A stretch of 64,000 nt of DNA from NCBI GenBank assembly GCA_022447225.1, contig JAKVAZ010000011.1, forward strand, positions 186,001-250,000, given 5' to 3'. The notes beneath the pieces are model-generated. The model did not search any database, was not told where the DNA came from, and saw only the letters and a list, made by a program, of their open reading frames with translations. This document shows, piece by piece, positions 1,001-34,602 of the stretch. The translations under genes were made by a program, and so were the position numbers. Every line of letters starts with the position of its first letter. The first letter of the stretch is position 1. Source of the stretch: Fuerstiella sp. GTDB lineage: Bacteria; Planctomycetota; Planctomycetia; Planctomycetales; Planctomycetaceae.

Positions 1001-3085
1001 TCACTTCGTCAGCCCGCAGTGACGAAGGAGTGCGTCGACAGTGGGTTCACGTCCGCGGAACTCCCTAAAGATGTCCATGGGGTGACGACTGCCCCCCTGT
1101 GCCAGAACTGTGTCACGGAATCGTCTGCCGGTTTCCGCGACGGCAGTTTCGTCGTCCAGCCCGGCATCCTCAAAGGCTCCGAATGCGTCAGCACTGAGCA
1201 CTTCAGCCCACTTGTAGCTGTAGTATCCGGCTGAATATCCACCGGAAAAAATATGCTGGAACGAACAAAGGAATCGATTCTCCGGCAATACCGGCATTGA
1301 TGACGTTGCCTCCGAGATCTTTTGAAATACATCAAATGCAGTTTCACTGCCGTCCGGATCAAATGAGGAATGAAGTTCAATGTCTGTCATGCCAAACAGT
1401 AGCTGACGCAGCATCGCGGTGGCGGCACGGTAAGTCCGTGCCGCACAGATTCTTTCAAAGAGTTCTTCCGGCAGCGTCTCACCTGATTCATGATGTACAG
1501 CCATACCCAGCAACGTTGGTCGATGATAACACCAGTTTTCCATGAACTGACTGGGTAATTCCACGGCATCCCACTCCACTCCACTGATTCCTGCTGCGTC
1601 ACGGTCATCAATCACAGTCAACATGTGCTGAAGGCCGTGCCCGAATTCATGGAACAGCGTTTCGACTTCTCGAAAGGTCATGAGTGACGGCACGTTGCCT
1701 ACCGGCGGTGTGCCGTTACAGATCAGATGGGCGATTGGAAGCCGCGCTTGTGACGGAGTTACCGATCGTGTGATGCAGTCATTCATCCATGCTCCGCCTC
1801 GCTTGTTTTCAGGACGCGAGTAGGGATCCAGATAGAACGCAGCGATGTATTCACTCTTTTCATTCCTGATTTCATAGTAGCGGACGTCATCGTGCCACCG
1901 CGGCGCTTTTTTGTCTGTTCTGACGACGGAGATTCCGAACAGTCGTTCGCATAAATCAAAGAGTCCGCTGAGCACTCGATCCAGTGAAAAATATGGTCGC
2001 AGTTCTTCGTCGGTGAAAGCAAAGCGTTCTTCACGCAGGCGTTCGGCCCAAAAAGGCAGGTCCCAGTGCGCCAGTGGACCTTCATGGCCGTGACCGTTTG
2101 CGTATCTTGTTATTTCGTCCAGTTCCTGCTGCCCTTTTTCGAGTGACTTTGTCAGGAGCTGTTGGAACATGGCATCAACACGATCGACTGTTCCGGCCAT
2201 CTTTCGTGACAGACTGAGCTCTGCGTAGTTGTTGAATCCCAGAAGTTTCGCCTGGAGATTCCTCAGCTTCAGGATCTCGGCGATTAACGGTTCATTATTT
2301 AATTCTCCGTCTGACGCCCGGCTGATCCAGGCACGATAGACGATCTCGCGGAGGTCCCGGTTGCGGCAGTGTTCCATAAAAGGTCCGAATGAAGGTGCAT
2401 CAAGCGTGATGCGCCATGGTCCAGACTCAGGTGTCGCTTCCTGTCCTTTGTTTTCCGCTGCCTGAGACCAGGCAGCGGCTGCCATTCTGCGGAAGCTGTC
2501 CGGAAGTCCCTCTGCATCTTCGGATTCAGTGAGATCCCGGTGGAAGGCTTTGATGGAATCGAGAACATGATTAGCGAAATCAGACCCCAGTTGAGAGAGT
2601 CGTTTCTGGCTCCTGTTGAATTCATTTTTGTCTCGGGGATCCAGTCCGATCCCCGAGAGTTCTGCATTTTGAATGGCCAGCGTGATAATCCGTTGCCGAC
2701 ATGCCGAGAGTTCGTTCCAGGTGTCGCCATCACGAAGACAGCACATTTGCTGATAGAGCGGCTGACTTTGCGCGATTCGCAGGCCAAACTCGACTACCGC
2801 CGGTAAAACAGTTTCGTGTGCCTGCCGAAGTTCATCACTGTTGACCACACTCAACAGGTGTCCAACAGCATTCCAGCCATATTCGTAAAGCAGGTCAATT
2901 TTTTCCAGCGGATTCATCAGGCTGTCCCACCCCCTGGCAGGTTGCTTTTCCAGCGAAGTGAGTAGTTGTTCCGCCCGCCTGAGCATTTCTGTGATTCCCG
3001 ACTCCACATGACCTGGCTGAATTGCATCGTAGCTCGGAATTCCTGATGTCCGCAGGATTGGATTGTCTGAATGTTCTAACGCCAT
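1001..3085 (-). CDS. prlC: M3 family oligopeptidase (oligopeptidase A-like)
   Basis: This is a 694-residue thimet-oligopeptidase-type zinc peptidase of the usual length for family M3. The HExxH zinc site is HEFGH at about residue 477. The third ligand region, GVEWDAVELPSQFMENW, follows about 27 residues later as in oligopeptidase A. No signal peptide is visible, so it is probably cytosolic and degrades short peptides, including cleaved signal peptides. The gene stands alone: it converges with the LRR gene at its 3' end and has an AT-rich intergenic region upstream. Confidence 0.93.
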   Translation of the reverse strand: MALEHSDNPILRTSGIPSYDAIQPGHVESGITEMLRRAEQLLTSLEKQPARGWDSLMNPLEKIDLLYEYGWNAVGHLLSVVNSDELRQAHETVLPAVVEFGLRIAQSQPLYQQMCCLRDGDTWNELSACRQRIITLAIQNAELSGIGLDPRDKNEFNRSQKRLSQLGSDFANHVLDSIKAFHRDLTESEDAEGLPDSFRRMAAAAWSQAAENKGQEATPESGPWRITLDAPSFGPFMEHCRNRDLREIVYRAWISRASDGELNNEPLIAEILKLRNLQAKLLGFNNYAELSLSRKMAGTVDRVDAMFQQLLTKSLEKGQQELDEITRYANGHGHEGPLAHWDLPFWAERLREERFAFTDEELRPYFSLDRVLSGLFDLCERLFGISVVRTDKKAPRWHDDVRYYEIRNEKSEYIAAFYLDPYSRPENKRGGAWMNDCITRSVTPSQARLPIAHLICNGTPPVGNVPSLMTFREVETLFHEFGHGLQHMLTVIDDRDAAGISGVEWDAVELPSQFMENWCYHRPTLLGMAVHHESGETLPEELFERICAARTYRAATAMLRQLLFGMTDIELHSSFDPDGSETAFDVFQKISEATSSMPVLPENRFLCSFQHIFSGGYSAGYYSYKWAEVLSADAFGAFEDAGLDDETAVAETGRRFRDTVLAQGGSRHPMDIFREFRGREPTVDALLRHCGLTK

Positions 3086-3503
3086 AGTTAAACCATTGAA
3101 TTAAATTCATAAGTACGATTGAAATGCCGCGGGTTATTACGGGCGATTACGAAATTATAATGTTGTACCGTCGTGAGGCTCATAGGTTGGTGGATCGATT
3201 GCGGCACGGGGAACCGTCATTACAACAAATCGCTACTAAGATTTAAAAAAAAACATGCAAGGGTAATTCCATACAAAAAATCGAATCATTAAAAGGTCAT
3301 CCGAAGTTCGATCATCGGTGTGATTCGCGATTGTCGAGTCGTACTTGGGAGGCTATAACCTGAGTCTGTGGCGCGACAGAGTCGGTCTGGATCGTCTTTG
3401 TTGCGGCCAAGGGATTGTGCCGCAATTCACCAACCTTTCGCAGGTTATGGAGAGCCGGTTTCGGCTCCCTGCGAATGTTTTTTTAAGTCAATGGTGCTGG
3501 CAG
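3086..3503. other. AT-rich intergenic region with possible promoters
   Basis: About 420 bases lie between the divergent oligopeptidase and the small gene at 3504. The region is clearly more AT-rich than its surroundings, with A-runs near 3245 and 3278. A perfect TATAAT sits at 3156-3161 on the plus strand, but no convincing -35 box is spaced before it. No gene was recognised here. Confidence 0.35.
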
Positions 3504-3686
3504 ATGAACGATCATCACATCGATCTTAAGTTGGGTGAGTCAATTGAGATTGACGGCCATACCGTGACGGTGCATCGCATCGATGATGTACAGCAGCAGG
3601 CGGTTCTTGAGATTGAAGGTCCGGACGGTCGTGTTGAGACGTTGACCGTCAGCGTCAGCCAGTTGCATGAGCCTGTGCTTGTGTGA
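3504..3686 (+). CDS. Small hypothetical protein, 60 aa
   Basis: The longer open frame begins at 3345, but its first 53 residues look non-coding; the ATG at 3504 opens a compact, hydrophilic, beta-rich 60-residue protein. The segment LGESIEIDGHTVTVHRID followed by ...LEIEGPDG is loosely reminiscent of CsrA (GE.I.I...V.V..I......+.I.AP). The CsrA N-terminal strand and RNA-binding Arg positions are not conserved, so I do not call it CsrA. There is no strong Shine-Dalgarno sequence. Function unknown. Confidence 0.45.
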   Translation: MNDHHIDLKLGESIEIDGHTVTVHRIDDVQQQAVLEIEGPDGRVETLTVSVSQLHEPVLV

Positions 3687-14062: not shown

Positions 14063-14986
14063 ATGCGGGAAACTGAATTTGTCGAACAGTTGAGACGCCG
14101 CTTTCCTGTGAATGATCCGGTTGCCACAGGAATCGGTGACGACGGGGCTATTCTGACGAATCCGGATGGGAGTCAGACCGTTGTCGTTTCAGACATGTTA
14201 CTGGATGGTGTTCATTTCGATGTTGCCGGTACACGTCCTGAACTGATCGGCCGTAAAGCAATTGCCGTGAATCTGAGCGACCTGGCGGCGATGGGGTGTT
14301 GTCCAACAGCTGCGTTTATCTCGATTGCGGTTCCTGGACTGACTCAGTCAAACCGATTTTTGAACGGGCTGTACCGTGGGATTCAGAGTCTGTCAGAACG
14401 TTTTGATTTCACCGTGGCCGGTGGCGATACAAATTCATGGACAGGACCTTTTGCCATCAGTGTTTCGATGACAGGTACGCCGTTTGATAATCGAGCGATT
14501 TTGCGGACGGGTGCTGAGCCCGGTGATTCGCTGGTGGTCACCGGTGCACTCGGTGGGAGTCTTGCATCGCAACGTCATCTCGCGTTTGAACCACGGCTTG
14601 ATGTTGCAAGGTTGCTGACCCGTAACAGCACAGTGCATGCCATGATCGATATCAGTGACGGCCTGGCAATTGACCTGCATCGACTGCTGAAGGCCGGGGA
14701 CACCGGTGCGCTGCTCTATCTTGATTCCGTTCCTGTTCACGAGGATGTTGCGTCAGGGTTGTCTCGGGAGGATCGGCTCCGGGCCGCGCTGTCTGACGGT
14801 GAGGATTTTGAGTTGCTGATGGCGATGCCTGCAGGCTTGGTCGATGCTGCAGCTGCGCTGGTACAGTCAGAGTCAGATTCAACGTTGACGGTTGTTGGAA
14901 CGATTACAGAAGATTCCGGGTGCCGCGCGGTCGATTCCGACGGGAACCTCAGCGATCTTCATGAAATCGGCTGGCAGCACGGCTGA
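14063..14986 (+). CDS. thiL: Thiamine-monophosphate kinase
   Basis: A 307-residue AIR-synthase-fold kinase that phosphorylates thiamine monophosphate to thiamine diphosphate. Family motifs are all present: GIGDDGAIL near residue 24, SDMLLDGVHFD, NLSDLAAMG, TVAGGDTN and IDISDGLAIDL. The ATG follows a run of ten G residues (14053-14062) that abuts the start codon and must serve as, or replace, the Shine-Dalgarno sequence. It is 18 nt downstream of the anion transporter stop, so translation coupling is likely. No TPP riboswitch is seen. Confidence 0.93.
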   Translation: MRETEFVEQLRRRFPVNDPVATGIGDDGAILTNPDGSQTVVVSDMLLDGVHFDVAGTRPELIGRKAIAVNLSDLAAMGCCPTAAFISIAVPGLTQSNRFLNGLYRGIQSLSERFDFTVAGGDTNSWTGPFAISVSMTGTPFDNRAILRTGAEPGDSLVVTGALGGSLASQRHLAFEPRLDVARLLTRNSTVHAMIDISDGLAIDLHRLLKAGDTGALLYLDSVPVHEDVASGLSREDRLRAALSDGEDFELLMAMPAGLVDAAAALVQSESDSTLTVVGTITEDSGCRAVDSDGNLSDLHEIGWQHG

Positions 14987-32268: not shown

Positions 32269-32883
32269 TTATCTGCGTACGGCTCCGGAATGTTCCAGTA
32301 ACTGCTCAAGCACATCATAAGGTTGAGCACCGGCTGCGGCGTGTTGTCCGGCAACAAACGTGGGGACCGATGTCACACCAAGCTTCCGTGACCGTTCCCA
32401 GTCCTGGTCAACGGCTGATCGATAATGTCCGGTGCTCAATTCGTCACGGCAGACGGATTCCTGCACTCCCATGCCGCTTGCGATTTCAATGAGATTTTCA
32501 ATCAGGGCGATGTTGATTCCGTCTGCGAAGTACGCTTGGAAAAGTCGGTTGTGGATCTGCTCTCCGTCCGGCTGTGTGACCATAAATGCGGCGAATTCCT
32601 GGGCAAGACGGCTGTTATAAGTCATCCTGCGGTCCCCGTATGGCAGACCTTCGATTTCCATCAGTTGTTTCATGCGGACCTGCGCTGCCGAAATATCGAT
32701 GCCACGACCGGCGAACAACTGTTCCAGTGTCATTCCTTCCGTTGGTGTTTTCGGGTGCAGTGGAAAATGGACGAAGCGAATATCGATGTCCCACTCCGTT
32801 CGCAGGCGTTCAATACGCACGGTACTGAGATAGCACCAGGGTCATATGTAGTCAGAAAAGACTTCCAGAACGAATCGATTCAT
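32269..32883 (-). CDS. DsbA/FrnE-family oxidoreductase, candidate selenoprotein (in-frame UGA)
   Basis: From the ATG at 32883 the frame reads MNRFVLEVFSDYI, then TGA (32844-32842), then PWCYLSTVRIERL and on without interruption to the stop at 32269. In this thioredoxin-fold family the active site is DYICPWCYL; the TGA occupies exactly the first, nucleophilic Cys. The rest of the 204-residue protein is fully conserved in character: FPLHPKTPTEGMTLEQLF, YNSRLAQEFAAF, FQAYFADGINIA, and GVTSVPTFVAGQHAAAGAQP with the cis-Pro. I therefore read TGA as selenocysteine (U14-P-W-C). A truncated form starting at a GTG (32820) would lack the active site. Candidate hairpins just after the UGA are listed separately. 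A point mutation (TGT/TGC to TGA) is the alternative. Confidence 0.75.
32796..32837 (-). promoter_or_regulatory. Candidate bacterial SECIS hairpins after the UGA codon
   Basis: Two small hairpins follow the UGA on the minus strand. The first begins 4 nt after it: GGTGCT, loop ATCTC, AGTACC (32837-32821), six pairs with one G-T. The second has inner arms GCGT, loop ATTGA, ACGC (32818-32806), inside outer arms CCGT and ACGG (32822-32819; 32799-32796); its apical loop begins about 27 nt after the UGA, within the spacing known for bacterial SECIS. Neither shows the ideal G in the first two loop positions, so this is a weak call. Confidence 0.35.
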
Positions 32884-32980: not shown

Positions 32981-34447
32981 CTACGCCAAAATCCCTTTGA
33001 CGACACTTCCGTGTACATCGGTCAGGCGGAAGTCGCGTCCCTGGTGCCGATAGGTCAGACGTTCGTGATCGATTCCCAGCTGCTGCAGAATTGTCGCATT
33101 CAGGTCATGGATGTGTACGGGGTTTTCCACGATGTTGTAGCTGAAGTCGTCCGTCTTGCCGTATTCGGTCCCGCCTTTGATTCCCGCTCCGGCCATCCAT
33201 TTGGTGTAGCATCGAGGGTGATGGTCGCGCCCATATTTTTTCCTGGACAAACTACCCTGGCAATAAATTGTACGTCCGAATTCTCCACCCCAGATCACCA
33301 GTGTGTCTTCCAGCAGGCCGCGCTGTTTGAGGTCCTGGACGAGGGCATAACATGGCTGATCGATGATGCGACACTGACGCCGGATGTCTTTGGGAAGATT
33401 GCTGTGCTGATCCCACTTGCGGATAAAAATCTGGGTGAACCGAACGCCACGTTCGGCCATACGGCGTGCCAGCAGGCAATTTGCTGCGAACGTCCCGGGC
33501 GTGGAGACGTCCGGACCGTACAGTTCCAGTGTCTGCCTGGATTCACCGGAAATGTCGGTCAATTCCGGAACCGATGTCTGCATACGATAGGCCATTTCAT
33601 ACTGAGTAATACGAGACTGAATTTCGGGATCTCCGACTTCATCGAATCTCTGGCTATTCAGCAGCATGAGTTCATCCAGCATACGCCGTCGCATGGACTC
33701 GGACATACCATCGGGGTTAGACAGATACAGGACCGGATCACCGGTTGACCGCAGGCTGACTCCCTGGTGTCGGGTGGACAGAAAACCGGATCCCCACAGC
33801 CGCGAATACAGAGCCTGTCCCCCGAAACTGCCGTTGACTGTGGAGTGCAGTACCATAAACGCCGGCAGGTTTTGGTTCAGGCTGCCCAGACCATAGGAAA
33901 ACCACGCACCGGTACTCGGACGACCAGGCAACTGACTGCCGGTTTGAATGTAGGTGATTGCCGGATCGTGATTGATCGCTTCCGTGTGAATCGTCTTAAT
34001 CACTGCCAGATCGTCCACCATTTTCCCGGTATACGGTAAGAGTTCACTGACCTGCATTCCACAGTCGCCGTGCTGTCGAAAACGAAAGGTCGATGGCGCA
34101 ATCGGAAAACGTTTTTGCCCCGAAGTCATTGTGGTGATACGCTGGCCGTTGCGCACTGAGTCTGGCAAGTCTCTGTCGAACCAGTCATTCATCATGGGCT
34201 TGTAGTCCCACATGTCCAGCTGAGACGGCGCACCGGACATGAACAGATAGATCACACGTTTTGCCCTCGCAGCAGAGTGCGGCAGACCCGGAAGTCCACC
34301 GGCTGGATCTGCGGAAGCCGCAGTGTTGTCTGCGAATAGCTGAGGATTGACCAGCGAACCCAGAGCTGCGGAACCGATTCCGGTTGACGTTCGGCCAAAG
34401 AAGTGTCGCCGGGTTTCGAGGAGCTCTGTTTCTCGGATGGGATGCAT
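32981..34447 (-). CDS. DUF1501 secreted protein with Tat signal
   Basis: The ATG at 34447 is chosen (frame open to 34471); it gives [30 protein letters not shown] as the start, with a twin-arginine motif RRHFFGR. The 488-residue body is typical DUF1501, a sulfatase/alkaline-phosphatase-fold family: [23 protein letters not shown] near residue 65, a central [15 protein letters not shown], and [10 protein letters not shown]...[21 protein letters not shown] near the end. It is almost always paired with a PSCyt1/DUF1549/DUF1553 gene, as here immediately upstream on the same strand. The substrate is unknown. Confidence 0.92.
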
Positions 34448-34602
34448 GGGTGAACCTTTTTCCGACCACACGAAAACACAAACAACAGGACTGGTGGTGA
34501 CGTTTGGTCTTTCTGAAACATTTGGAACCGGAACTGGACAACGATCAGGACATTCAGGCTGATCGGGTTTTGTTCGCAGTCATGAGTGATTCATTTCTTC
34601 TG

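What the first reader, a model, noticed from the sequence alone, without database searches (positions are those of the whole stretch)
32269..32883. Candidate selenoprotein: UGA replaces the first active-site Cys of a DsbA/FrnE-family enzyme
The frame from the ATG at 32883 to the stop at 32269 is interrupted once, by TGA at 32844-32842, exactly where the family has the nucleophilic Cys of CPWC (DYI-TGA-PWCYL). All the rest is well preserved, including the cis-Pro region SVPTF. A random nonsense mutation would not be expected to fall on this codon and leave the rest untouched. UxxC replacements of CxxC are the classic bacterial selenoprotein pattern in thioredoxin-fold families. Conventional gene callers will start at the GTG (32820) and lose the active site.
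Basis: partly seen in the sequence, partly recalled or inferred. Interest (0 to 1): 0.9.

Follow-up and report, generated by a model that had tools for sequence, protein, structure and literature searches.

The report
Selenocysteine-containing FrnE/DsbA-like oxidoreductase gene
A bacterial redox enzyme of the DsbA/FrnE family is encoded with an in-frame UGA "stop" that is almost certainly read as selenocysteine at its catalytic position; this is a real and well-supported gene, but it belongs to a selenoprotein family that has been known since 2005.

Summary
The frame 32883-32269 (-) has one in-frame TGA (32844-32842), at the first Cys of the CPWC motif of a FrnE/DsbA-like protein (PF01323, E 2e-30). 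The genome has a complete selenocysteine system: a selB-selA-selD run, and tRNA-Sec with anticodon UCA. All 17 orthologues found in 170 genomes of the same order carry TGA at this codon, and all 17 lie in genomes with selA (selA is in 69 of 170; P = 6e-8). Three more TGA forms lie in another family of the phylum, in SAR324 and in Chloroflexota; these genomes have selA too. A 7-bp hairpin 14-32 nt after the UGA, with the loop guanine expected of bacterial SECIS elements, pairs in 98.6% of cells with compensatory changes. Among the 17, the stem codons never change synonymously. The frame is under purifying selection (dN/dS about 0.17). A second selenoprotein (FmdB) lies elsewhere in the genome. 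DsbA-like (COG2761, UxxC) selenoproteins are a published family, so this is a new member of a known kind. Whether selenocysteine is really inserted, and what the enzyme's substrate is, remain untested.

The parts
32269..32883 (-). Coding sequence of the FrnE/DsbA-like selenoprotein (204 aa, UGA read as Sec at codon 14)
   Evidence: PF01323 2.1e-30; FrnE structures 8.6e-20; 17/17 orthologues with TGA at the same codon; dN/dS about 0.17 against L023
32842..32844 (-). TGA codon proposed to encode selenocysteine (U14 of UPWC)
   Evidence: aligns with Cys22 of D. radiodurans FrnE
32810..32828 (-). Bacterial SECIS hairpin UCAGUAC-CGUGC-GUAUUGA, 14-32 nt after the UGA, 7 bp
   Evidence: 98.6% of cells paired over 20 sequences, 13 cells with changes on both sides, 0/500 shuffles as high; stem codons synonymously invariant
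32817..32821 (-). Apical loop CGUGC, G at second place, 20 nt between the UGA and the loop
   Evidence: fits the published bacterial SECIS loop rule (PMC13188914)
32833..32835 (-). Second (resolving) Cys of the UPWC motif, C17

Best explanation
The gene encodes a FrnE-subfamily DsbA-like thiol/disulfide oxidoreductase, predicted to be cytoplasmic (no signal peptide seen by eye), whose nucleophilic residue is selenocysteine (U14-P-W-C17). Steps shown here: the UGA is at the catalytic position; it is conserved with a hairpin immediately downstream; the genome holds SelA, SelB, SelD and tRNA-Sec(UCA). Steps inferred: a ribosome reaching the UGA with SelB-GTP-Sec-tRNA-Sec bound to the hairpin inserts Sec instead of terminating; the selenolate attacks substrate disulfides and is resolved by C17 through a selenenyl-sulfide, giving reductase or isomerase activity in thiol stress, as for Cys-FrnE of D. 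radiodurans.
For: selA 508 bits, selB 348 bits and selD 233 bits, all above their curated cut-offs; tRNA-Sec 70.8 bits with cut-off 47, anticodon TCA by ARAGORN. 17/17 orthologues in the order with exactly one stop, TGA, at this codon. All 17 in selA genomes out of 69/170, P = 5.9e-8. The three TGA forms outside the order also in selA genomes. Hairpin covariation: 98.6% paired against 88.4% shuffled and at most 41% for slid controls. Synonymous identity 1.00 at the five stem codons against mostly 0.2-0.7 elsewhere. dN 0.10, dS 0.57. A second TGA-bearing gene, fmdB, in the same genome.
Against: No protein or RNA data. The minimal hairpin of the window sequence is weak (-4.9 to -5.9 kcal/mol), short of the -7.5 kcal/mol in the published model, and the 45-nt stretch has a competing fold at -11. 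That competing fold would probably be opened by the ribosome before the UGA is decoded, but this is inference. Substrate and physiological role are unknown; there is no conserved gene neighbourhood beyond the closest relatives.
Confidence: 0.96

Rival explanations
1. Pseudogene: a nonsense mutation (or sequencing error) that happens to fall on the active-site codon.
For: A single TGA interrupts the frame.
Against: The same codon is TGA in 20 genomes from at least three phyla; the rest of the frame is under purifying selection; no other interruption; strict co-occurrence with selA.
Confidence: 0.01
2. Two-part gene: a short peptide ends at the UGA and a shortened 183-aa protein starts at GTG 32820, without the redox active site.
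For: ORF callers would give this.
Against: The GTG is not conserved: several relatives have GTC, GTT or GGG there. It sits in the hairpin loop. The 13 codons before the UGA are conserved as protein, with third-position-biased changes. The product would lack the first strand and the CxxC of a thioredoxin fold.
Confidence: 0.02
3. TGA read as Cys or Trp by a changed genetic code or by low-level misreading, not as selenocysteine.
For: UGA stands where homologues have Cys.
Against: 16 of 32 long open frames of the window end in TGA; the genome has the full Sec system; the covarying hairpin goes with TGA forms and is missing from most Cys forms; only genomes with selA hold the TGA form.
Confidence: 0.01

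Closest known systems
DsbA-like selenoprotein family (COG2761 / PF01323, UxxC; 'DsbA 1' and 'DsbA-like protein form 1')
   Same: Same Pfam family, same UxxC motif with U replacing the first Cys, SECIS hairpin downstream. COG2761 was assigned by the Sargasso Sea paper (PMC1088965); listed again in PMC2398784 and PMC13188914.
   Different: The papers read here do not mention planctomycete members of this family. The published sequences themselves were not aligned with ours, so identity of the subfamily rests on the family assignment.
Deinococcus radiodurans FrnE (DR_0659; PDB 5cnw, 5cp1)
   Same: DsbA-like thioredoxin fold, CPWC motif, match over residues 5-192 of 204, VP-containing cis-Pro loop.
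   Different: Sec in place of Cys22; no C-terminal CXXXXC motif, which PMC8945050 describes as important for regeneration of drFrnE.
Selenoproteins of algal planctomycetes P1 and P2 (PMC4807772)
   Same: Probably a related kind of host with full Sec machinery; Sec-containing FmdB in P2, which this genome also shows.
   Different: That paper's main text does not mention a Dsb-like selenoprotein; its supplementary list could not be read.

Membership tests
Bacterial selenoprotein | In-frame UGA at a position that is Cys in homologues | tested here: met
Bacterial selenoprotein | Host has SelA, SelB, SelD and tRNA-Sec | tested here: met
   all above cut-offs
Bacterial selenoprotein | Hairpin directly downstream with 4-16 bp stem, loop of 3-9 nt, G in the first two loop positions, loop 16-37 nt after the UGA | tested here: met
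   7 bp, loop CGUGC, G at place 2, 20 nt between UGA and loop (rule from PMC13188914)
Bacterial selenoprotein | SECIS minimum free energy of -7.5 kcal/mol or lower | tested here: inconclusive
   Minimal hairpin -4.9 to -5.9; whole 45 nt -11 but in another fold
Bacterial selenoprotein | UGA conserved in relatives | tested here: met
   17/17 in the order plus three outside it
Bacterial selenoprotein | Selenium incorporated into the protein | not testable with these tools
   Needs 75Se labelling or mass spectrometry
FrnE/DsbA-like thiol oxidoreductase (PF01323, COG2761) | DsbA-like domain over the whole length | tested here: met
   PF01323 residues 6-196, 106 bits, cut-off 25.6
FrnE/DsbA-like thiol oxidoreductase (PF01323, COG2761) | CxxC (here UxxC) and cis-Pro loop | tested here: met
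   UPWC and SVPTF
FrnE/DsbA-like thiol oxidoreductase (PF01323, COG2761) | C-terminal CXXXXC motif of drFrnE (present in many members, not in all, so not defining) | tested here: not met
   Absent from the 204-aa sequence; also absent from D. maricopensis and S. roseofulvus FrnE (PMC8945050)
FrnE/DsbA-like thiol oxidoreductase (PF01323, COG2761) | Disulfide reductase or isomerase activity | not testable with these tools
   Needs enzyme assay

The most novel reading that the evidence does not exclude
In this order the FrnE orthologue exists only as a selenoprotein and only in Sec-decoding genomes (17 of 17), while outside it the same enzyme has switched between Sec and Cys several times, in at least one case leaving a SECIS-like hairpin behind in a Cys form (L046) whose genome shows no selA. 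The gene would then be a natural series for studying how Sec and Cys replace each other.
Probability: 0.45. Interest if true: 0.5.

Novelty: new member of a known kind. Interest (0 to 1): 0.35.

Why it matters
It shows that standard annotation of these genomes would lose the active site of this redox enzyme, and it gives a clean test case: one family of Sec orthologues with a visible, synonymously frozen SECIS hairpin, and Cys relatives outside. For the host it adds a probable cytoplasmic Sec-dependent thiol oxidoreductase to a Sec system that also serves FmdB.

Tried and rejected
Pseudogene, alternative GTG start and reassigned UGA were considered and rejected (see rivals). Folding the 45 nt after the UGA as a whole gives another minimum-energy structure for the window sequence; the SECIS hairpin became clear only from relatives. 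A pattern search for the UGA plus hairpin in viral contigs found nothing. Gene neighbourhood gave no functional hint: the upstream gene (window 32981-34471) is kept just upstream of the selenoprotein gene only in L023-L026. No NCBIfam model names this selenoprotein; the best hit, the Rcas_1661 (seleno)lipoprotein family, is far below its cut-off (32 against 190 bits). A first automatic choice of strand in my script was wrong for several loci and was replaced by a motif-based one. No structure was predicted, since sequence matches to solved FrnE structures were already clear.

Full report
Observation. The minus-strand frame 32883-32269 reads MNRFVLEVFSDYI-TGA-PWCYLSTVRIERL... to a TAA, with one in-frame TGA at 32844-32842 and no other interruption. 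With Cys at that codon the protein matches PF01323 over residues 6-196 (2.1e-30) and the solved FrnE protein of Deinococcus radiodurans (8.6e-20). The TGA codon aligns with Cys22 of its catalytic CPWC (motif position from PMC8945050).

Selenocysteine machinery. The genome holding the window (G000, 5.4 Mb, 97% complete) has selB (348 bits, cut-off 242), selA (508 bits, cut-off 268) and selD (233 bits, cut-off 125) in one run on contig C1, with selB and selA overlapping. selD is the C-terminal half of a 752-aa protein with an N-terminal pyridine-nucleotide disulfide oxidoreductase, and its GCGCK motif is intact (the catalytic role of that Cys and Lys is established knowledge, not tested here). 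tRNA-Sec with anticodon UCA lies on contig C8 (70.8 bits). A second gene with in-frame TGA, a formylmethanofuran dehydrogenase subunit B (TIGR03129, 498 bits against cut-off 328), has TGA in the motif SL-U-HGP. Sec-containing FmdB is published for a planctomycete (PMC4807772).

Conservation. Among 170 genomes of the same order, 17 (including G000) encode an orthologue at E <= 1e-20; all 17 have exactly one internal stop, TGA, at the same codon. selA is found in 69 of the 170 and in all 17; P = 5.9e-8 if independent, not corrected for shared descent. No Cys form was found in the order at that threshold. A phylum-wide sample gave one more TGA form in a different family (L070). A scan of genome contigs gave 31 loci with a relative, mostly Cys forms, but also TGA forms in a SAR324 MAG (L041) and a Chloroflexota MAG (L050). 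These three hosts also have selA. So 20 of 20 TGA forms lie in selA genomes.

SECIS. Immediately downstream, at 14-32 nt after the UGA (window 32828-32810), all 20 TGA forms can form UCAGUAC-CGUGC-GUAUUGA or a variant of it: 7 standard pairs in 18, 6 in 2. Over the 20 sequences 98.6% of the cells are paired, 13 cells change on both sides, and none of 500 shuffles does as well on these measures; slid partners pair in at most 41%. Examples are UCGACUC/GGGUCGA in L050, UCUGCAC/GUGUGGA in L027 and UGAGUAC/GUAUUCA in L041. Among the 17 order members, pairs of sequences that agree in the amino acid always use the same codon at CTC, AGT, CGT, ATT and GAA (the stem), whereas most other codons agree in 20-70% of such pairs. 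CGT is one of six Arg codons and is shared in 136 of 136 pairs. The loop has G at its second position and 20 nt separate it from the UGA, as the published model asks (PMC13188914). Two cautions: the hairpin alone is only -4.9 to -5.9 kcal/mol in the window sequence, and a longer stretch folds otherwise on its own. I infer that the ribosome removes the competing 5' arm, which begins 4-5 nt after the UGA. The GTG at 32820, where ORF callers start, is in the loop of this hairpin.

Selection. Against the closest relative (82% identical), dN is 0.10 and dS 0.57 over the whole frame, with the SECIS codons lower in dS (0.23) than the rest (0.58). The putative GTG start at 32820 is not conserved. 16 of 32 long open frames in the window end in TGA, so UGA is an ordinary stop in this genome.

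Evolution. In a maximum-likelihood tree of 46 sequences the Sec label needs 5 changes, and well-supported branches force at least 3, so Sec and Cys have probably switched more than once. The Gemmatimonadota Cys form L040 sits inside the Sec clade (95/88), suggesting loss of Sec there, although its genome has selA. The Geobacteraceae Cys form L046 keeps a 7-bp hairpin with the same stem letters except one, and its genome shows no selA. This is a possible fossil SECIS, but it is a MAG and absence is weak evidence.

Function. By relationship the enzyme is a FrnE-subfamily thiol/disulfide oxidoreductase. Cys-FrnE of D. radiodurans is predicted cytoplasmic, has disulfide isomerase and insulin reduction activity in vitro, and its loss sensitises cells to cadmium and diamide (PMC8945050). 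The present protein lacks the C-terminal CXXXXC that helps regenerate drFrnE. Sec at the nucleophile could make the active site easier to turn over with thioredoxin or another reductant; this is inference.

Status. Sec-containing DsbA-like proteins with UxxC and COG2761/PF01323 were described in 2005 and are in the current list of prokaryotic selenoproteins (PMC1088965; PMC2398784; PMC13188914).

Noticed in passing
L078 (G000:C21:9502-9849 and flanks, minus strand): fmdB gene (TIGR03129, 498 bits) with in-frame TGA at SL-U-HGP: a second selenoprotein of the genome.
   Followed up: partly
L072:6042-8300: selD is fused behind a pyridine-nucleotide disulfide oxidoreductase (752 aa in all) directly after selB-selA.
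   Followed up: partly
L046 (Geobacteraceae MAG), match 3001-3582: TGC codon and the 32 nt after it: A Cys form of the enzyme keeps a 7-bp hairpin UCAGUAU-CGUGA-GUAUUGA at the SECIS place; the genome shows no selA: possible fossil SECIS after a Sec-to-Cys change.
   Followed up: partly
L040 and L039 (Gemmatimonadota and unnamed MAG): L040 (Cys form) nests inside the Sec clade. The L039 frame around its CPWC ends early (69 aa) and continues in another frame, so that copy may be frameshifted.
   Followed up: partly
L070 (G297:C122:319-690): A TGA form in another family of the phylum whose frame ends after 142 residues; truncated or frameshifted.
   Followed up: no
G099 (same genus as the window): Has selA but no orthologue of this gene, so gene presence varies within the genus.
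   Followed up: no
14111-14755: Weak selD-model hit in the window (52 bits, below the cut-off); probably another AIR-synthase-like kinase such as thiamine-phosphate kinase.
   Followed up: no
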